IMG/VR virus record: IMGVR_UViG_3300042922_000971
Span: 1 to 24,856 of that record
Direction: 5' to 3' (one strand)
Length of the DNA: 24,856 nucleotides
DNA from: a virus
A model generated the notes under the pieces. That model did no database searches, was not told where the DNA came from, and saw only the letters and a program-made list of their open reading frames with translations. Made by a program: the position numbers and the translations under genes. Below, in pieces: positions 14-24,745 of this stretch. Positions within the stretch are counted from its first letter, which is position 1; each line of letters begins with the position of its first letter.

Positions 14-86
14 GGGCCATTAGCTCAGGGGATAGAGTGGCAGACTTCGAATCTGTTCGTCGGGGGTTCGAATCCCTCATGGCTCA
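14..86 (+). tRNA. tRNA-Arg, anticodon UCG (reads CGA)
   Basis: A full cloverleaf can be drawn. The acceptor stem GGGCCAT pairs with ATGGCTC (one G-T pair), the D stem is GCTC/GAGT, the anticodon stem GCAGA pairs with TCTGT, and the T stem GGGGG pairs with CCCTC around TTCGAAT. The seven-base anticodon loop CTTCGAA gives anticodon TCG. The discriminator base is A86 and CCA is not encoded. It is the only RNA gene seen. Its position beside the lysis end of the prophage makes it a plausible phage attachment site, but no second copy of its 3' end is present in the window. Confidence 0.95.
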
Positions 87-164
87 CTAATTGCAATGAG
101 TATAGCTGTTATTTTAAGGTTTAAGAAACTGAATTAACATAAAATTAACATAATGTCATTGCTC

Positions 165-263: not shown

Positions 264-503
264 ATGAAGATTATAAATGAACCTATTAAAGTTATAGCTA
301 TATTTAATAAGGATGGAAAAATTGAGCCGGTAAAGTTCTGGTACGAAGATGAGACAGTAATAGTTGAAAAAATTCTCAAAACTTATGAAGATAAGAGCTT
401 TGGAAATAACAATATAATGTTTGTGTGCCAACACAAAGGAAGCTCCATTTATGAATTAAAATATGACTTTAAGAGTAACATCTGGTACATGTACAAAAAA
501 TAA
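264..503 (+). CDS. Small conserved-looking protein of unknown function (79 aa)
   Basis: An ATG start follows AGGTG at 254-258. The protein opens MKIINEPIKVIAIF and alternates short beta-strand-like stretches with charged turns; there is no signal peptide or membrane segment. It resembles small clostridial proteins that begin with a similar MKxINxPI stretch and end in an ELKY/W motif, a family I know only as uncharacterised. It is the only plus-strand gene on the left side, has its own extended -10 promoter, and is followed by a hairpin at 505-525. It could be a host gene next to the tRNA or a prophage end cassette; the sequence does not decide. Coding confidence is high, function unknown. Confidence 0.8.
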   Translation: MKIINEPIKVIAIFNKDGKIEPVKFWYEDETVIVEKILKTYEDKSFGNNNIMFVCQHKGSSIYELKYDFKSNIWYMYKK

Positions 504-504
504 A

Positions 505-525
505 GCCAGGATATTCAGTCCTGGC
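505..525 (-). terminator. Terminator between convergent genes
   Basis: GCCAGGA (505-511) and TCCTGGC (519-525) form a perfect 7-bp stem. Read on the minus strand it is followed by TTTATTTTTT, a strong intrinsic terminator for the 581-1393 gene and any phage read-through. On the plus strand only a weak T run follows, so it may serve both directions unequally. Confidence 0.85.
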
Positions 526-580
526 ATCCTTGAAATTTGGAATTAAATTAAGCATATATAGCATTCTAATTTATAAGCAT

Positions 581-1393
581 CTATTCAAAATAGTAATAAA
601 TTAAAACTACTAAAAAAAGAACTACACAACTTTCTAAACTTATTAATCCTTTATTATTTTTTAATTTATCAAAAACTGTCTTTTCTTTACATTCTTTAAA
701 ACTGTCCTTGATTTTTTCACCAATATAGAAAACTATTATGAAGATAAAAGCAATAAAATTATTTCTATGACTATATAATTTATATTCAAACAACATATAT
801 GAAAAATAATTAAACCATATTATACATGTGAAAATTAATACTATCTGAAACAAATCATATAAAGTCACACCATAATCACTTTCATCAATTTGCCTTGATA
901 GTATATTTAAGATATCTTTTGTCTCTTGAACCTCTGTTTCAGTTTTATTTATCAATATATTAACTTTACTAAGTTTTTCATCTAATTCTTCTTTAATTTT
1001 TATGTTTTCTAAGCAATCAATACTATCAAGTCCTTCAATTTCCTTGATAAGTGATTTAGATTCCTGCTTATTTTTTTTTAGAATACTTTCACATTTGTTT
1101 AATTCGGTTTTAGCCTCATAATACTCTTTTTTTAGCTTATTAATATCACTGCTTTTTATACTATTTACAAAAATAACGAAAACAAAGACAGCCATTAAAA
1201 ATACCGAATTTAAGAATAAACAAAAGAATATAAGTTTAGTAAACTCTAAATTAAAAAACAACTCTCTATTATAAATAAATACGTATGAAGTGCTTGGGAT
1301 AATTAAAATAAATATTCCCATTACTATTTTTAAAATTGTACCATAATCTCGATCATTTATGACTTCTATCATTGTTTTTATTAAATCTTGCAT
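581..1393 (-). CDS. Membrane protein with central coiled coil, unknown function (270 aa); candidate lysogenic-conversion gene
   Basis: I do not recognise a family. The layout is clear: two membrane segments (about residues 18-40 and 53-78), a long charged heptad-rich coiled coil (about 82-168), two more hydrophobic segments (about 179-203 and 211-225), and a C-terminal one (about 250-268) ending in a short aromatic tail. It starts at ATG with GGAGTG just upstream. It has its own consensus promoter (1428-1456) and a strong terminator (505-525), so it is a self-contained unit placed after the lysis genes at the edge of the element. That placement and build are typical of phage cargo expressed from the prophage, such as superinfection exclusion or other envelope-modifying functions. 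This role is inference; no catalytic motif is seen. Confidence 0.8.
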   Translation of the reverse strand: MQDLIKTMIEVINDRDYGTILKIVMGIFILIIPSTSYVFIYNRELFFNLEFTKLIFFCLFLNSVFLMAVFVFVIFVNSIKSSDINKLKKEYYEAKTELNKCESILKKNKQESKSLIKEIEGLDSIDCLENIKIKEELDEKLSKVNILINKTETEVQETKDILNILSRQIDESDYGVTLYDLFQIVLIFTCIIWFNYFSYMLFEYKLYSHRNNFIAFIFIIVFYIGEKIKDSFKECKEKTVFDKLKNNKGLISLESCVVLFLVVLIYYYFE

Positions 1394-1427
1394 TTTTCAC
1401 TCCAAGGATAAAACATTTTATAGAAAT

Positions 1428-1456
1428 ATATTACAATATATTGCATTATTTGTCAA
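1428..1456 (-). promoter_or_regulatory. Sigma-A promoter of the 270-aa membrane protein gene
   Basis: On the minus strand TTGACA (1451-1456), a 17-base spacer, then TAATAT (1428-1433). The -35 is perfect and the -10 matches at four of six positions. The start codon is 35 bases downstream of the -10. It overlaps the T-run of the preceding lysis-operon terminator, so the gene is uncoupled from late transcription. Confidence 0.85.
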
Positions 1457-1489
1457 AAAATAAAAAAAGACCGGACATATTAGCCCGGT
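1455..1489 (-). terminator. Terminator of the lysis/late operon
   Basis: On the minus strand ACCGGGC (1483-1489) pairs with GTCCGGT (1470-1476), one G-T pair, six-base loop, followed by a run of Ts down to 1455. The holin stop codon lies in the loop. It marks the end of the phage late transcript. Confidence 0.9.
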
Positions 1490-1824
1490 TCTTCTTCTTG
1501 ATTTGCAAGATCTTCAAATAACAAATTCTTTGATCTATTCAATTCATATACAGCTGCTTCGATCAAGGCATCAAGTTCTTCATCCGTAATAGTAATGCCT
1601 TTTCCCTTTAGAAACTCCATAACATAAGTCTTCTTACTGGGGCCGCTTTCAGGCACTTTGAAGATCTGTTCGGCAGCGGCCACTGCAGCATTTACCCACA
1701 TCTCAATAACTGAGAGTTTCTCATTGCCTATTTTGGCTCTAAGCCAAGGCACTACAAAGTATGTCAACACTAAAGTGATAACCGTTAAAACGGCCATTAA
1801 GATTTGATAAATTGCATTTTCCAT
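1480..1824 (-). CDS. Phage holin, LLH family (114 aa)
   Basis: One hydrophobic segment near the N-terminus (about residues 5-28) is followed by WLRAKIGNEKL, an alanine-rich helix containing AVAAAEQIF, and an acidic tail. This matches the phage LL-H type holin family (Holin_LLH). Holins permeabilise the cytoplasmic membrane at the end of infection and release or activate the endolysin. Its ATG overlaps the stop of the upstream peptidase (TAATG), with GGATG ahead, so the two are translationally coupled. It is the last gene of the lysis operon, directly before a strong terminator. A second holin-type gene lies two genes upstream. Confidence 0.85.
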   Translation of the reverse strand: MENAIYQILMAVLTVITLVLTYFVVPWLRAKIGNEKLSVIEMWVNAAVAAAEQIFKVPESGPSKKTYVMEFLKGKGITITDEELDALIEAAVYELNRSKNLLFEDLANQEEEPG

Positions 1825-2426
1825 TAACTCATCATCCTTTCACATATTATTATTGTTCTGATCATATCCTCCGATAAATCAAGTTCTCCAGAGCTGTTGC
1901 CTTTGATATAACCTTTATCAACCCAACCCATTACATACGCCTGCATCCATTCAGGCATGTCCTTTATGTTTTTGTACCTTTTTACTTCTGCCACTATCAA
2001 ATCAACCTCTCTTTCTTCTAAAATTGTGAAGTAATTCTGCGGATCTATTGATACGCCCTGAGCATTTCTCACTTCAAAATGCAAATGACTACCGAAGCTA
2101 TAGCCTGTCTGCCCTTCTACACCGACAGCCTGTCCCTTTTTTACCTTCTGTCCCTTGGCCAGTAGGCGCTTTGATAAATGGCAATAATGAGGATAGTAAC
2201 CATGGCCATCATCAAGCTTAATGTAGTTCCCCCACTCCCAAGTTGCGTTTGTTTTATCCAGGATGATTTGTGAACTGACAACCGTTGCATCACATAATGC
2301 TAATACATTTTTGGAAGTCAAGCCAACACAATCTATCCCCTTATGTGTCCTGGTATCTCCATTTGCCAGTGTTCGCGGACCAAACCAAGATGTTACTTTA
2401 TACTCTCCGTCATATAGTTTCATCAT
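1824..2426 (-). CDS. Endolysin: M23 zinc endopeptidase with C-terminal SLH-like domain
   Basis: The N-terminal domain carries the M23 (LytM/lysostaphin) signature. Numbered from an upstream TTG, the zinc ligands are H31 and D35 in HKGID and H119 in HLH, with H86 in the PHYCHLS stretch as the catalytic histidine. The enzyme would cut peptide cross-links of peptidoglycan. Residues about 155-203 (MPEWMQAYVMGWVDKGYIKG, then LDLSEDMIRT) resemble the S-layer-homology-like module seen in clostridial phage lysins and are probably for wall binding. I place the start at the ATG at 2426, nine bases after GGGAG; the in-frame TTG at 2435 is jammed against the ribosome site. There is no signal peptide, so export depends on the holins. 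It overlaps both neighbouring holin genes. Confidence 0.9.
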   Translation of the reverse strand: MMKLYDGEYKVTSWFGPRTLANGDTRTHKGIDCVGLTSKNVLALCDATVVSSQIILDKTNATWEWGNYIKLDDGHGYYPHYCHLSKRLLAKGQKVKKGQAVGVEGQTGYSFGSHLHFEVRNAQGVSIDPQNYFTILEEREVDLIVAEVKRYKNIKDMPEWMQAYVMGWVDKGYIKGNSSGELDLSEDMIRTIIICERMMS

Positions 2427-2904
2427 CTTTAGCAACTCCCTCCTCTTCCAATATTTTTTCTTTCCTATGTTTGACTATTGCCAGCAGCCACTTTACATCA
2501 CTGCCTGCATCATCAAGATTCTCAAGTATTGATTGGCACTCTCTTAAAAATAAAATAGAGTAAACAACCGTTCCGAGAAATGCTGCTACTCCGGCAACCG
2601 GTGATACCCTATAACTTAAGCCAACCATTATGAAAATTATCAGATATGCAAATATTTTTCTTGATGTTCCCACCCACATACTATTACTGTTTATATATTT
2701 GCCTTTTATGCTTTTCCATAGCCCGCCATGATGGACAGCAATTGAGTAATACTTTGTAATGATGTCTAGCACCATAACACCTACTACTGCACAAAATGCC
2801 GTCAAATATGAGCTCTCTGGAAATAGAACGTACATTACAGCGCTTAAAAATATTGCTGCAATTGGCTGCACGTTCTCAAATGCATTTTTTAAATACTCAT
2901 TCAA
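2410..2904 (-). CDS. Phage holin, phi-holin 4 / TcdE-UtxA type (about 164 aa)
   Basis: Three to four hydrophobic segments are visible, including IAAIFLSAVMYVLF, LTAFCAVVGVMVLDIITKYY and two more around IFAYLIIFIMVGL and VAAFLGTVVYSIL. The order, the LDIITKYYS motif after the second helix and the S-R-K stretch before the third match the bacteriophage holin 4 family, which includes TcdE of Clostridioides. The tail is acidic. The start is probably the TTG at 2904 with AGGTG five bases upstream; an in-frame TTG at 2919 lacks a ribosome site. Its 3' end overlaps the endolysin gene. A terminator at 2939-2964 separates it from the upstream acyltransferase gene. Confidence 0.85.
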   Translation of the reverse strand: MNEYLKNAFENVQPIAAIFLSAVMYVLFPESSYLTAFCAVVGVMVLDIITKYYSIAVHHGGLWKSIKGKYINSNSMWVGTSRKIFAYLIIFIMVGLSYRVSPVAGVAAFLGTVVYSILFLRECQSILENLDDAGSDVKWLLAIVKHRKEKILEEEGVAKDDETI

Positions 2905-2938
2905 TCCAACACCTCTCAAATTTAATTTTTAAATATAA

Positions 2939-3003: not shown

Positions 3004-4008
3004 TTATATCTTCTTATTATAATCACGTATACCTAATAAAGTATTGTATAATTTGTCCATATAAAATATCTTTGAAACTTTCCGAATTAATAATAGTAAC
3101 CCAGCATTAAATATCAAAATAATTATTGGATTTAAAAATTCAAATATTGGGCTTTCAATAAAAAATCTTCTAATTGGAAAAACCATAAAATGAGTTAAGT
3201 ATATACTAAATGTGAGGTCTGATAAATTGTGAAAAACAGGCTTATTAAATATTTCCATTGTTGATAAAGTAAAAATGAAAATCATACCCGCAAGTTGCAT
3301 TGGTATTGCTAATTTAGAAAAATATCCACCTGCATTCGGCTCTATTAAAAATACTATAAATAATAAAATAATATAGCTTGGAATGATATAAAATACTTTT
3401 GTTTTTAGGAAAGAAAAAAAGTCTTCTAACCTTCCTTTTGCTATAACACCAATAGAAAAATAACCTATCCAATTAAACACATTTAAATAATTATTTACTT
3501 TTATTCCTAAAATTTCTGCGAGGTAATCAATTAATCCAAAGCTTGTTAATATAAGCGATAATATGTTTATGATTATAAATATTTTCAAGAATAACTCTCT
3601 TCGTACTAAACACATAAAGCAATAGCATAGCATGAGCACTGATAAATACCATAAATACGTTCCATTTCCCAATAGCCAATTTGCCAAATTTAGAATACTG
3701 AAATTTATAAAATTTGTTTTAAATTGATTATAAAAATATAGAATGCTTCCAGTAAATACCCAAGGTACTAAAATTGTTAAGAATTTTTTATGCCAGAATT
3801 TTTTTATTTCAACACTATTATTAATATTAAAATAATACCCAGAAATAAAAAGAAAAACGGGTACACCAACAGCACCAATACGTTCAGTAATATTTCCTAC
3901 AAAATAATAATCAGCATTACGTGAATGTGCAAATATTACTGATAAAATAGCAAAAACCTTAGCTATTTTCATTACATAGCTTACATTAACATTCGAATTG
4001 TTTACCAC
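3004..4008 (-). CDS. Membrane acyltransferase, acyltransferase-3 family (334 aa)
   Basis: Ten or so hydrophobic segments and three family motifs are visible: the catalytic-type histidine H28 in VIFAHSR, the VPVFLFISGYYF stretch at 49-60, and LWYLS near 120, with SIYLTHF near the C-terminus. Proteins of this family transfer acetyl or other acyl groups onto cell-surface sugars from the inner side of the membrane. In prophages they typically alter surface polysaccharide and block related phages (serotype conversion). The start is GTG with AGAGGAGA nine bases ahead. The gene has its own promoter with repeated operator-like elements and its own terminator, and interrupts the tail-fibre to lysis order, all marks of a later-acquired moron. 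The exact acyl acceptor cannot be told. Confidence 0.88.
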   Translation of the reverse strand: MVNNSNVNVSYVMKIAKVFAILSVIFAHSRNADYYFVGNITERIGAVGVPVFLFISGYYFNINNSVEIKKFWHKKFLTILVPWVFTGSILYFYNQFKTNFINFSILNLANWLLGNGTYLWYLSVLMLCYCFMCLVRRELFLKIFIIINILSLILTSFGLIDYLAEILGIKVNNYLNVFNWIGYFSIGVIAKGRLEDFFSFLKTKVFYIIPSYIILLFIVFLIEPNAGGYFSKLAIPMQLAGMIFIFTLSTMEIFNKPVFHNLSDLTFSIYLTHFMVFPIRRFFIESPIFEFLNPIIILIFNAGLLLLIRKVSKIFYMDKLYNTLLGIRDYNKKI

Positions 4009-7447: not shown

Positions 7448-7677
7448 TCAGATATCACCTCCAGGATAAAGAATTGTTGTCCTCCATGATTCCTTAAAAG
7501 TCTTACTTTACGGCCAGCAACCAGCGAACCCTTTAAATTGCCATAGACAAGCTCTAAGGGTATTGTAAGTTTGTCACTCACCTTTATTCCTTCGCTTGTC
7601 ACTGTGCCAATAAAAAAACTACATAGCTTTTCATTGCTCAGGTAGTTTTGCACTATGGTTTTAATCTCATTTATCAT
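7444..7677 (-). CDS. xkdR: Baseplate protein, DUF2577, XkdR-like (77 aa)
   Basis: A short protein between XkdQ and XkdS with the DUF2577 pattern: a helical start (MINEIKTIVQNYLSNEK), then a beta barrel-like section with GTVTSEGIKVSDKLTIPLEL and VRLLRNHGGQQFFILEVI. The GGQQFFILE ending is characteristic. It is thought to be a baseplate hub accessory. It overlaps both neighbours by four bases. Confidence 0.88.
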   Translation of the reverse strand: MINEIKTIVQNYLSNEKLCSFFIGTVTSEGIKVSDKLTIPLELVYGNLKGSLVAGRKVRLLRNHGGQQFFILEVISE

Positions 7678-8612
7678 ATTGCCACCTCCACAGTCATTGT
7701 GTGAACGGGTAAGAATTCATGTGTTACTGATTTGACTAGGAGCCGCTTATTGAGGCCCACATCTTCAATAGATGCGTAAAAACTTGTCCCGGCTCTCACC
7801 CTTGTATCTCCCAGGCAATTCAAAGTCAATGTTTCTGTTTCTCTATTGTAAAGACTTAATAACATGTCTGCTTTTGCTTTTGCCTGTGATGGATTACCGT
7901 TCTTGTCAAGCACTTCGAAATACTGCAGAAGCCCAAATTTAGCAATGGAGTTGTTGTCCTTTGACATATATACATCTCGTTTGCCTGTTGTTTCATTGTC
8001 GCTAACAAGCTTAATCACGTTGTAAAAATCATCATCTATAGACTTTTGGTATTCGAAGTCATAGCACAAACTTTCATCGCCTAAAACTAAATCCAGCCTT
8101 AAATCCTCAAGGTCCCTTATAGCCACACTCCCGAACTCATCTCGAAGTGCGTACCATTTACCTTTATTCATCAGTGTATCGCTAAGAGCCTTGTAAATGA
8201 TATCAAGCCAGGTCTTGTCGTCCTGGACACTAGTAGCAAGCTTATATACCGTGTCGGTTAATAATCCGATTGGCAATCCGAAATAATTGCACATCTTATT
8301 AACAAGGGTAGTCACTGTGTCATTTTTTACCACTATAGTGTCCTTTGACTTGCAGTATCTTAGTTGATCATAAGCTGTTATTGAAATTGCTTTTCTTTTG
8401 TTCTGGCCATGTTTAAACGCATAGCCATAAAAGATATTTGTATCATCGTATTTGAATCTTATGATACTGCCATTTTCAAGCTTTAAATTATCATCTACAT
8501 AGGAAAATTCAAACTTGCTGCAGCCATCATTTAGCTTATCCGTAAATGAAACAGACTTCGCAAGTTCACTTATTTCATATATCTGGTCAGTCTCAACTAA
8601 AAACTCCATCAT
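7674..8612 (-). CDS. xkdQ: Baseplate hub protein, XkdQ/YqbQ family (312 aa)
   Basis: The protein matches the XkdQ/YqbQ family, structurally akin to T4 gp27/phage P2 gpD hub proteins. Visible blocks are LAKSVSFTDKLNDGCSKFEF near residue 20, GYAFKHGQNKRKAISITAYD near 75, LRYCKSKDTIV with a following small domain, and the late ADMLLSLYNRETETLTLNCL and LLVKSVTHEF segments. It forms the central tail hub through which DNA passes. The start is ATG-ATG; the upstream XkdP gene overlaps by four bases. Confidence 0.9.
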   Translation of the reverse strand: MMEFLVETDQIYEISELAKSVSFTDKLNDGCSKFEFSYVDDNLKLENGSIIRFKYDDTNIFYGYAFKHGQNKRKAISITAYDQLRYCKSKDTIVVKNDTVTTLVNKMCNYFGLPIGLLTDTVYKLATSVQDDKTWLDIIYKALSDTLMNKGKWYALRDEFGSVAIRDLEDLRLDLVLGDESLCYDFEYQKSIDDDFYNVIKLVSDNETTGKRDVYMSKDNNSIAKFGLLQYFEVLDKNGNPSQAKAKADMLLSLYNRETETLTLNCLGDTRVRAGTSFYASIEDVGLNKRLLVKSVTHEFLPVHTMTVEVAI

Positions 8613-22537: not shown

Positions 22538-22828
22538 TTATATTCCATTTTCTATAAAATTTTTAAGTGTATACACTAGTGCTTGTACGTTTTCAATCTT
22601 AGTATCGATATCATTAAAACTAAAATTATCTTTCCTCCTACAAGCATCTTCGTACTTATTTTTAAAAGTATCATTTCCTCGCATAACTTTTTTGTATAAA
22701 GTCATTTCGGCTTTTATCTTTTCATATTCAATTTCTAATTTTTCCTTTTCTTTCATTAAAACTTCTAAGTCAGCTTTCAAGTCCTCTAATAACTCATTAT
22801 AAGCAATTTCTTTATAATCTTTTCCCAT
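22538..22828 (-). CDS. Coiled-coil protein of unknown function (96 aa)
   Basis: ATG at 22828 lies ten bases after a run of Gs (GGGGGG). The protein is almost entirely charged helix: KDYKEIAYNELLEDLKADLE, then a heptad-rich EKEKLEIEYEKIKAEMTLYK, a basic RRKDNF stretch and a final helix VQALVYTLKNFIE. There is no membrane segment or known motif. It has a good promoter (22860-22888) and its own terminator (22505-22528). It lies between the IS element and the late promoter, so it may be a regulator, a cargo gene or a host gene at the border. A longer in-frame reading further upstream crosses into the promoter and is unlikely. Confidence 0.75.
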   Translation of the reverse strand: MGKDYKEIAYNELLEDLKADLEVLMKEKEKLEIEYEKIKAEMTLYKKVMRGNDTFKNKYEDACRRKDNFSFNDIDTKIENVQALVYTLKNFIENGI

Positions 22829-22859
22829 AGTAAAAATTCCCCCCATACATTTTTCTTTT

Positions 22860-22888
22860 ATTGTACTACGGAAAACATTACCATGCAA
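22860..22888 (-). promoter_or_regulatory. Promoter of the 96-aa coiled-coil gene
   Basis: On the minus strand TTGCAT (22883-22888), 17-base spacer, TACAAT (22860-22865). The gene starts about 32 bases downstream of the -10. The IS element begins 30 bases upstream of the -35. Confidence 0.75.
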
Positions 22889-22917
22889 TAGCTGAATAAA
22901 AAAAGGCCCCTTAAATC

Positions 22918-22949
22918 TGAACTGCTTCCCGTCAAGTAGACAGTTAAAA
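22918..22949 (+). repeat. Left terminal inverted repeat of the IS element
   Basis: Matches the right end at 30 of 32 positions, with differences at G22931/A and G22943/A. It starts TGAACTGC, immediately after a C-rich, A-run flank that looks like half a terminator. Confidence 0.92.
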
Positions 22950-22980
22950 TAATAAAACTGTTTAACTAGGAGGGAGCATT

Positions 22981-23658
22981 TTGTATAGAAACAAATATAC
23001 ACCAGAGGAGAAAATATTAATAGTTAAAAAAGTTATAGAAGGAAAGCATAGTATTAATTCTTTGGCAACATCTTATAGTTTAAGTTATACTACACTAAAA
23101 GAATGGGTTCGAAACTATCAATCTATTGGTTCTGATGCATTTTATACGATAGGTTGGGCAAATAGGACAATTGAAGAAAAAGAAGCTGCTGTTTTAGATT
23201 ATATTTCAGGTAAAGGATCATTAAGTGACATTTGCAAAAAATACAAAATTTCAGATACAAAAGCACTTCGCAGATGGATTTTGAAGTATAATAGTCATGA
23301 GAAGCTTAAAGCTTCTGGAAAAGGAGGAAGCACTATCATGACCAGAGGAAGAAAAACCACATTTGATGAACGAGTTGAAATCGTACAGTATTGTATTGCT
23401 AATAAACACAATTATGCTGAAACATCCAAAAAATTTCAGGTGTCGTATCAGCAAGCACGAAATTATACAGTAAAATATGAATTGGGCGGAGTTGAAGCTT
23501 TGGAGGATAATCGAGGCAAAAGAAAATCTGAGAATGAAATGTCTGAATTAGAACAACTTCGTGCTGAAAACAGGATTTTAAAAGCTGCAAAAGAATGTGC
23601 TGAGATGGAGGCATCATTCTTAAAAAAACTCGAGGAGATAGAAAGGAGGCGGGGATAA
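22981..23658 (+). CDS. IS3-family transposase OrfA (225 aa)
   Basis: Start is TTG, seven bases after AGGAGG. The protein has three successive helix-turn-helix-like units: YTPEEKILIVKKVIEGKHSI at about 6-45, a second near residues 70-105 (KKYKISDTKALRRWILKY) and a third near 122-165 (FDERVEIVQYCIANKHNYAE), then a leucine zipper (SELEQLRAENRILKAAKECA) from about 188. That order is typical of IS150-group OrfA, which binds the terminal repeats and, fused to OrfB, forms the transposase. A run of seven As at 23622-23628 near its end permits -1 slippage into orfB. Confidence 0.9.
   Translation: MYRNKYTPEEKILIVKKVIEGKHSINSLATSYSLSYTTLKEWVRNYQSIGSDAFYTIGWANRTIEEKEAAVLDYISGKGSLSDICKKYKISDTKALRRWILKYNSHEKLKASGKGGSTIMTRGRKTTFDERVEIVQYCIANKHNYAETSKKFQVSYQQARNYTVKYELGGVEALEDNRGKRKSENEMSELEQLRAENRILKAAKECAEMEASFLKKLEEIERRRG
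23622..23628 (+). promoter_or_regulatory. Slippery A-run for OrfA-OrfB -1 frameshifting
   Basis: In the OrfA frame the sequence reads TTA AAA AAA, so A AAA AAA is in slip position. The -1 frame is open from here through orfB. An AGGAGG at 23644-23649 lies downstream and could instead support entry into orfB, although that frame has no ATG nearby. Confidence 0.65.
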
Positions 23659-24557
23659 GCCTGATCCGTCATGAATACATATATCAGGCAATTAAAGAAG
23701 AAAATGAGGAACATCATTATCCAATAAGTGCACTTTGTAAGCTGGGAAAAGTATCTCGTGCTGCTTATTATAAATGGATACATAGAGATATTCCAGCGGG
23801 TGAACTTAAAAATCAATATATTGCTGATGAAATAGAGAAGATTCATGGAGATTCTCCAGATAAAGGATATCGTCGAATCAGAGATGATTTGGAACGATAT
23901 CATGATATAAAGGTCAATGATAAGAGGGTATTACGTATCTGTCGCAAAATGGATATAAAATCAACTATCAAATATGCAAACAATGGATGTACAAGACAAG
24001 CAGCTAATCCGAAGCATATAGCTGAAAACATCCTGAATAGGGAGTTTACAGCTGAAGCTCCAAATGAAAAGTGGCTTACTGATGTAACGGAATTTCATTT
24101 TTACATTGGAATTGAAAAGCATAAAGTCTATTTGAGTGCAATCCTAGACTTATATGATAGAAGAATCGTTTCTTACATCATCAATGATTCAAATAACAAT
24201 GCATTGGTTTTTGATACATTTGATGCTGCAGTTGACGCAAATCCGGATGCACATCCCATTTTTCATAGCGACAGAGGATATCAATATACAAACAGAATAT
24301 TTCACTTAAAACTTGAAGCTGCTGGAATGACACAGAGCATGTCAAGGGTAGCCAAATGTATTGATAATGGACCAATGGAAGGTTTCTGGGGGATCATTAA
24401 AAGAGAACGCTACTATGGAAAAAGATTTACCAGCAGAGAATCTGTTATTGAAATGATAGATAGTTACATCAAATACTATAATAACAAAAGATTACAAAGG
24501 AACTTGGGTGTGCTAACACCAATGGAAAAACATGAAATATACATGAAAGCAGCATAA
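23628..24557 (+). CDS. IS3-family transposase OrfB, DDE integrase (about 309 aa as the frameshift extension)
   Basis: The N-terminal part contains YPISALCKLGKVSRAAYYKW and DKGYRRIRDDLERYHDIKVN (the HTH_21 region), followed by the integrase core. The catalytic residues are all present: D in WLTDVTEF, D in FHSDRGYQYTN and E in MEGFWGIIKRE, with 35 residues between the second D and the E, the DD35E spacing of IS3. The end YYNNKRLQRNLGVLTPMEKH is also standard. No ATG with a ribosome site exists at its beginning, so it is expected as a fusion with OrfA through -1 slippage. It appears intact. Confidence 0.92.
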   Translation, partial: TRGDRKEAGISLIRHEYIYQAIKEENEEHHYPISALCKLGKVSRAAYYKWIHRDIPAGELKNQYIADEIEKIHGDSPDKGYRRIRDDLERYHDIKVNDKRVLRICRKMDIKSTIKYANNGCTRQAANPKHIAENILNREFTAEAPNEKWLTDVTEFHFYIGIEKHKVYLSAILDLYDRRIVSYIINDSNNNALVFDTFDAAVDANPDAHPIFHSDRGYQYTNRIFHLKLEAAGMTQSMSRVAKCIDNGPMEGFWGIIKRERYYGKRFTSRESVIEMIDSYIKYYNNKRLQRNLGVLTPMEKHEIYMKAA

Positions 24558-24560
24558 AAA

Positions 24561-24587
24561 CTGCCAGTAGGTATTACCAGCTGGCAG
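24561..24587 (+). terminator. Hairpin after orfB, likely IS terminator
   Basis: CTGCCAG (24561-24567) pairs with CTGGCAG (24581-24587), with GGT/ACC able to form inside. A T-rich stretch follows after a gap of eight bases, so termination may be partial. Confidence 0.6.
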
Positions 24588-24602
24588 AAAAGATTTATAT
24601 TT

Positions 24603-24634
24603 TTTTAATTGTCTACTTGATGGGAAGCAGTTCA
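24603..24634 (-). repeat. Right terminal inverted repeat of the IS element
   Basis: Inverse complement of 22918-22949 with two differences. It ends CA, followed by ATTTCTG. Confidence 0.92.
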
Positions 24635-24745
24635 ATTTCTGTAAAGGGTATTTGTATTTTGATGAAGCTGTAAGTAGTACATCGAAAGAAATTTCATGCT
24701 CTTAGACTTACCTATGCAACAAAATTATTTTTGTGGTTATGAAAA

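What the first reader, a model, noticed from the sequence alone, without database searches (positions are those of the whole stretch)
505..1456. Self-contained membrane/coiled-coil gene between lysis module and tRNA: candidate exclusion or defence gene
Seen: a 270-aa protein with two N-terminal membrane segments, an about 85-residue coiled coil, three C-terminal hydrophobic segments, a perfect TTGACA -35 with 17-base spacing, and a strong terminator. It follows the lysis operon terminator directly. Known: the slot between lysis genes and the attachment site commonly holds lysogenic conversion and anti-phage genes. No family is recognised. Inference: an uncharacterised prophage-encoded envelope-acting exclusion factor.
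Basis: partly seen in the sequence, partly recalled or inferred. Interest (0 to 1): 0.65.

Follow-up and report, generated by a model that had tools for sequence, protein, structure and literature searches.

The report
Prophage cargo gene, membrane protein
A dormant bacterial virus in a Clostridia host carries, right after its cell-bursting genes, an extra gene with its own on/off signals that makes a membrane protein of an undescribed family; genes in this spot often help the host cell, for instance against other viruses, but what this one does is not known.

Summary
The described gene is real: 581-1393 (-), 270 aa, with ribosome-binding site, own promoter (TTGACA-N17-TAATAT) and terminator, directly after the lysis-operon terminator. 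It is 22% G+C against 38-39% in the phage's late and lysis genes: a recently acquired moron. Relatives sharing the lysis module carry something different in the slot: a metallo-beta-lactamase-fold protein, an HATPase-like protein, a 203-aa single-TM protein, or a 93-aa ORF followed by a host NAD-kinase gene. In two of the four an integrase comes next. This supports a variable cargo slot at the prophage end; a tRNA attachment site is likely, not shown. The protein matches no curated family. Its marginal hit to the defence nuclease PD-lambda-1/SNIPE is an artefact: scrambled copies that keep the hydrophobic pattern hit as well. One distant relative was found: the N-terminal 90 residues (two membrane helices) match a 193-aa protein beside a serine recombinase in a Clostridiaceae genome (0 of 3000 scrambles as good). 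Exclusion or abortive infection is the best single guess, by position and build (compare PdpSau of S. aureus prophages), but nothing here tests it. Ordinary as a prophage moron; the family is undescribed.

The parts
581..1393 (-). Cargo (moron) gene: 270-aa membrane protein; TM1 about 20-42, TM2 51-77, charged helical stretch 78-172, TM3 178-203, TM4 212-231 (marginal), TM5 252-270
   Evidence: 22% G+C against 38-39% in late and lysis genes
1428..1456 (-). Its own sigma-70-type promoter TTGACA-N17-TAATAT
   Evidence: 0.2% of shuffles of the upstream region give an equal
1425..1442 (.). Perfect 8-bp inverted repeat AATATATT-N2-AATATATT overlapping the -10: possible operator (inference)
1400..1403 (-). 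Ribosome-binding site GGAG, 6 nt before the ATG
   Evidence: sequence
505..525 (-). Intrinsic terminator of the cargo gene (hairpin plus T-rich tail on the minus strand)
1470..1489 (-). Terminator of the lysis operon, ends 13 nt before the -35
1480..1824 (-). LLH-family holin, last gene of the lysis operon (upstream border of the slot)
   Evidence: Pfam Phage_holin_6_1 E 2.5e-19
1824..2435 (-). M23 peptidase endolysin
   Evidence: Pfam E 1.3e-21
2410..2919 (-). Holin of the Phage_holin_4_1 family
   Evidence: Pfam E 1.7e-9
264..503 (+). 79-aa ORF between the cargo gene and the tRNA, convergent with it; no family
14..87 (+). tRNA-Arg(TCG): probable host attachment site of the prophage (inference)
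   Evidence: body 97-98% identical to chromosomal tRNA-Arg in some Clostridia

Best explanation
It is a prophage moron: a horizontally acquired cargo gene with its own transcription signals in the variable slot between the lysis operon and the attachment end of a Clostridia myovirus-type prophage (this part about 0.9 likely). Its product is an integral membrane protein with an N-terminal two-helix module that is also found in a protein beside a serine recombinase in a Clostridiaceae genome. By the positive-inside tendency, its charged helical stretch lies in the cytoplasm. Most likely it is made in the lysogen from its own promoter and works at the cytoplasmic membrane to protect the lysogen from other phages, either by blocking DNA entry (exclusion) or by disturbing the membrane when an infection is sensed (abortive infection). 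Shown: gene, signals, position, variable slot, foreign composition, membrane helices, distant N-terminal relative. Inferred: expression in the lysogen, topology, anti-phage role. Not shown at all: what triggers it or what it touches.
For: Own promoter and terminator right after the lysis terminator. G+C 22% against 38-39%. Relatives with the same lysis module have different slot contents: L158 a 93-aa ORF then NAD kinase; L161 an MBL-fold protein then integrase; L002/L170 an HATPase-like protein; L172 a 70-aa and a 203-aa single-TM protein (25% G+C) then integrase. P0001 is absent from the L158, L161, L002 and L159 records (the tool warns that an empty answer is weak). Topology from charges: N-terminal stretch, helical stretch (18 K/R) and loop 4-5 on one side. 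Positional analogue: PdpSau, a 278-aa membrane-anchored protein always downstream of the amidase in the lysis module of S. aureus prophages, blocks kayviruses by abortive infection (PMC10127798). Prophage diversity hotspots elsewhere hold anti-phage systems (PMC9122126). Homology of residues 1-90 to the L180 protein: score 122 against at most 97 in 3000 pattern-preserving scrambles and 73 for the best of 8531 other frames.
Against: No defence family or motif is matched; the PD-lambda-1 match is an artefact. Slots of this kind also hold genes for other host benefits: the MBL-fold and 93-aa genes of the relatives are not known defence genes. No expression data. The relative L180 is not in an evident prophage and its neighbourhood is not a proven defence island. 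The structure model is poor, and its viral-library search gave no match at E <= 0.001.
Confidence: 0.4

Rival explanations
1. Lysogenic conversion of another sort: a moron membrane protein that changes host physiology or envelope (stress, surface, transport) with no anti-phage role.
For: Same anatomy; the slot in relatives holds an MBL-fold protein with a copper-amine-oxidase-N domain and an Ada-type metal-binding end (L161) and an HATPase-like protein (L002); an acyltransferase gene of 25% G+C sits upstream of the lysis genes in the window.
Against: No enzymatic or transport family is recognised in this protein.
Confidence: 0.3
2. Passenger or fast-decaying gene with no selected function in this prophage.
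For: Almost no relatives; absent from the closest relative record; strongly A+T-rich.
Against: Intact 270-codon frame with promoter, ribosome-binding site and terminator; N-terminal module conserved against a distant relative.
Confidence: 0.14
3. An accessory lysis-timing protein (antiholin or inhibitor) of the adjacent lysis operon.
For: Directly follows the holin gene, same strand, membrane protein.
Against: Separated by a strong terminator and driven by its own promoter; relatives with the same lysis genes lack it; size and five segments are unlike the holins.
Confidence: 0.08
4. An ordinary host gene beside the tRNA, outside the prophage.
For: The record starts 13 nt before a tRNA and the true prophage end is not shown; the 79-aa ORF could be host.
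Against: The gene lies between the lysis operon and the tRNA, so inside any prophage that ends at the tRNA. No full-length relative in the sampled Clostridia genomes, including those with the near-identical tRNA.
Confidence: 0.04
5. A shortened member of the PD-lambda-1/SNIPE family (membrane-bound nuclease that cuts injected phage DNA).
For: PADLOC PD-Lambda-1 E 0.002 and phrog_1847 E 4e-4 over residues 63-176.
Against: Pattern-preserving scrambles reach PD-Lambda-1 at E 0.0006 and 0.0039 and phrog_1847 at 0.02. No match to DUF4041 or a GIY-YIG nuclease, the two parts required for SNIPE defence (PMC13190303).
Confidence: 0.01

Closest known systems
L180 protein (193 aa, GTG start, beside a serine recombinase in a Clostridiaceae genome, G893)
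   Same: N-terminal about 90 residues align from the start of both proteins (31% identity, PSxxxxFxYNxELF motif), same two-TM module
   Different: After residue 90 no detectable similarity: it continues with two more TM helices and ends with a short coil, whereas P0001 has the long helical stretch between TM2 and TM3
PdpSau of Staphylococcus aureus prophages (PMC10127798)
   Same: Same slot (directly downstream of the lysis genes), accessory, similar size (278 aa), membrane-anchored
   Different: [quoted passage not shown] sequence comparison with P0001 not made
PD-lambda-1 / SNIPE (PMC13190303)
   Same: Membrane helix followed by a helical stretch
   Different: No DUF4041, no GIY-YIG nuclease; the HMM match is reproduced by scrambled sequence
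Prophage diversity hotspots of anti-phage systems (P2/P4-like and others; PMC9122126)
   Same: Small variable cargo locus between conserved phage genes
   Different: Different phage group and position; no known defence system in the window's slot

Membership tests
Prophage moron (autonomous cargo gene) | Own promoter and terminator between phage operons | tested here: met
   sequence signals only:
Prophage moron (autonomous cargo gene) | Nucleotide composition unlike the phage backbone | tested here: met
   22% against 38-39% G+C
Prophage moron (autonomous cargo gene) | Absent or replaced in otherwise related phages | tested here: met
Prophage moron (autonomous cargo gene) | Expressed in the lysogen | not testable with these tools
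   no RNA data
PD-lambda-1 / SNIPE | HMM match above what the TM-plus-helix pattern alone gives | tested here: not met
   real 0.002, scrambles 0.0006 and 0.0039
[quoted passage not shown]
   no Pfam match at E <= 1; the protein has hydrophobic segments there
PdpSau-type membrane abortive-infection protein | One N-terminal TM helix plus soluble positively charged C-terminal domain | tested here: not met
   five hydrophobic segments, the last at residues 252-270
Known defence families of PADLOC-DB | Specific HMM match | tested here: not met
Holin / antiholin | Match to holin families | tested here: not met
Superinfection exclusion protein (functional class) | Blocks infection by incoming phage without a change in adsorption | not testable with these tools
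   needs an infection assay

The most novel reading that the evidence does not exclude
The gene founds an undescribed family of clostridial mobile-element membrane proteins with a shared N-terminal two-helix module (motif PSxxxxFxYNxELF) and exchangeable C-terminal parts, which defend the lysogen at the membrane against incoming phages.
Probability: 0.22. Interest if true: 0.55.

Novelty: new member of a known kind. Interest (0 to 1): 0.3.

Why it matters
Variable slots at prophage ends are a source of new anti-phage and host-benefit genes, and in Clostridia they are poorly surveyed as far as I know. The holin and M23 endolysin of this lysis module are usable anchor genes: the slot after them held a different gene in each of the relatives found. 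The N-terminal module shared between the window's protein and a protein beside a recombinase gives a first handle on an undescribed membrane family that can be tested by simple expression and plating.

Tried and rejected
Homologue scans with the whole protein and with its two ends in viral contigs, and with the whole protein in genome contigs: nothing; these scans need nearly exact 8-residue words, so they reach close relatives only. tblastn in phages and plasmids: nothing. Weak hits in Clostridia genomes that I read or located were histidine kinases, NlpC/P60- or M23-type peptidases with coiled coils, or other helical stretches and were set aside; only L180 aligns over the N-terminal TM module. 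PD-lambda-1/SNIPE relation: rejected by pattern-preserving scrambles; simple local shuffles had not exposed this. Solved structures by sequence: nothing below E 0.1. The second structure job was not used, because the only relative (L180) was not fetched by a tool on that tool's list. Host identification by IS3 element and tRNA: best IS match 79% over part of the element, best tRNA matches 94-97% over the body only; host species not identified. Looking for 13-mers shared between the window's prophage end and L158, L161 or L002: none. Regions fetched downstream of other terminase relatives (L152-L156) did not carry the same lysis module.

Full report
What the window is. The window is a 24.9-kb virus record. 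From about 22.2 kb leftwards on the minus strand it carries the late genes of a contractile-tailed phage: terminase, portal, head, sheath, tape measure, baseplate and Mu gp48-like protein, tail fibre, holin, M23 endolysin and LLH holin. The closest terminases are mostly in Clostridia, up to 78% identity. A tRNA-Arg(TCG) lies at 14-87 and an IS3-type element at about 22.9-24.6 kb. The integrase and repressor end is not in the record.

The ORF at 581-1393 (-) encodes 270 aa. It is far longer than chance frames of this composition and has a GGAG ribosome-binding site. Its promoter TTGACA-N17-TAATAT starts 13 nt after the lysis-operon terminator, and its own terminator is at 525-505. The perfect -35 with an acceptable -10 appears in 0.2% of shuffles of the upstream stretch, while the number of promoter-like sites over the whole region is at chance level, so the call rests on position as well as on sequence. 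A perfect inverted repeat, AATATATT-N2-AATATATT, overlaps the -10 and could be an operator; this is inference.

The protein. Hydropathy gives segments at about 20-42, 51-77, 178-203, 212-231 (weak) and 252-270, with a charged helical stretch at 78-172. The single-sequence AlphaFold2 model is all-helical and of low confidence (pLDDT 62, pTM 0.38). Positive charges favour a cytoplasmic helical stretch (18 K/R) and loop 4-5 (6 K/R), with short outer loops; topology is inferred, not shown. The a/d pattern is only half hydrophobic, so 'coiled coil' should be read as 'long helical stretch'.

It is cargo. Its G+C is 22% against 39% for the lysis genes and 38% for the late region. Relatives sharing the lysis module were found by scanning viral contigs with the endolysin and holin. 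L158 is very close: 92-96% in several tail proteins, 87% in gp48, 96% in the first holin and 89% in the endolysin. It lacks the gene; its slot holds a 93-aa ORF and then a NAD-kinase gene, a host housekeeping gene, so there the prophage ends at the slot. In L161 the slot holds an MBL-fold protein followed by an integrase. In L002/L170 it holds an HATPase-like protein. In L172 it holds a 70-aa and a 203-aa single-TM protein (25% G+C) followed by a protein that looks like an integrase, called from its sequence and position, not by an HMM. In L161 and L172 the integrase follows the slot, so in an integrated prophage the slot should abut the host. That fits the tRNA at the window's end, but no attachment repeat could be shown.

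The tRNA. Its body (positions 21-78) is 97-98% identical to a chromosomal tRNA-Arg(TCG) found next to tRNA-Gly(GCC) in several Clostridia genomes; the acceptor stem differs, and those host copies encode CCA where the window has CTA. It is therefore a bona fide tRNA of a host-like type. Whether it belongs to the host or to the phage is open.

Homology. Close relatives are absent from viral contigs, genome contigs, phages and plasmids at the sensitivity of those tools. Family libraries gave only matches to the helical stretch. The most tempting one, PD-lambda-1 (SNIPE, a membrane-bound nuclease; PMC13190303), was tested with nine scrambled sequences that keep the hydrophobic pattern: two reach PD-lambda-1 at E 0.0006 and 0.0039, as good as the real 0.002. 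A first control with local shuffles had looked reassuring, which shows that such shuffles are too lenient for TM-plus-helix proteins. SNIPE membership is rejected.

A distant relative. Among 207 Clostridiaceae genomes one hit was different: L180 aligns with residues 2-90, the two N-terminal TM helices, from the very start of both proteins. The Smith-Waterman score is 122; 3000 pattern-preserving scrambles give mean 52, s.d. 11.7 and maximum 97, and the best of 8531 other frames in the held loci gives 73. I take this as real homology of the N-terminal module. The rest does not align above chance. The L180 gene (193 aa) sits near a serine recombinase (identified by eye from sequence), a DUF2806 protein and an ion-channel protein, in a stretch that looks like a genomic island (inference).

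Function. Position, autonomy, membrane location and foreign composition fit a gene that benefits the lysogen. The nearest documented parallel in position and build is PdpSau, a 278-aa membrane-anchored accessory protein always located downstream of the amidase in the lysis module of S. aureus prophages, which halts kayvirus replication and disturbs the membrane (PMC10127798). The domain architecture differs (one TM helix and an OB-fold-like part against five segments), so this is a parallel, not membership. I give about 0.4 to an anti-phage membrane role, 0.3 to another lysogenic-conversion role, and the rest to passenger, lysis accessory or host gene.

Verdict. As a thing it is a new member of a known kind (a prophage moron encoding a membrane protein), with an undescribed N-terminal module. 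Interest is modest.

Noticed in passing
3004-4008 (-): Acyltransferase_3 gene (O-acetyltransferase-like, PHROG 3333) of only 25% G+C between the tail-fibre genes and the lysis genes; the L158 relative seems to lack it. Probably a second moron (surface modification).
   Followed up: partly
about 22925-24640: IS3-type insertion element (transposase ORFs 22981-23658 and 23889-24557, inverted ends TGAACTGCTTCCC...) near the end of the record upstream of the terminase genes.
   Followed up: partly
14-87: tRNA-Arg(TCG) whose body is nearly identical to a chromosomal tRNA-Arg of several Clostridia, but with a different acceptor stem and CTA in place of the encoded CCA.
   Followed up: partly
264-503 (+): 79-aa ORF without relatives between the tRNA and the cargo gene, convergent with it, good ribosome-binding site.
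   Followed up: partly
22538-23002 (-): 154-aa ORF of 28% G+C without any family match, upstream of the terminase genes beside the IS element.
   Followed up: no
L161 about 8530-8560 and L158 about 7650-7680: Both relatives carry TTGACGGCAAAAAAACG(T/G)CAAA after the slot, near the integrase (L161) or the host junction (L158): possibly part of the attachment site. Not found in the window's prophage end.
   Followed up: partly
L158 7861-8664: A NAD-kinase gene follows the prophage end in the closest relative: probable host flank and a different integration site from the window's.
   Followed up: partly
L172 4883-5494: 203-aa single-TM protein of 25% G+C in the same slot before an integrase; no family. 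Another candidate cargo gene.
   Followed up: partly
L183 11355-16613: Near the distant relative: DUF2806 protein, an ion-channel protein with a TTGYGD filter and a 423-aa protein without family, near a serine recombinase: possible genomic island.
   Followed up: partly
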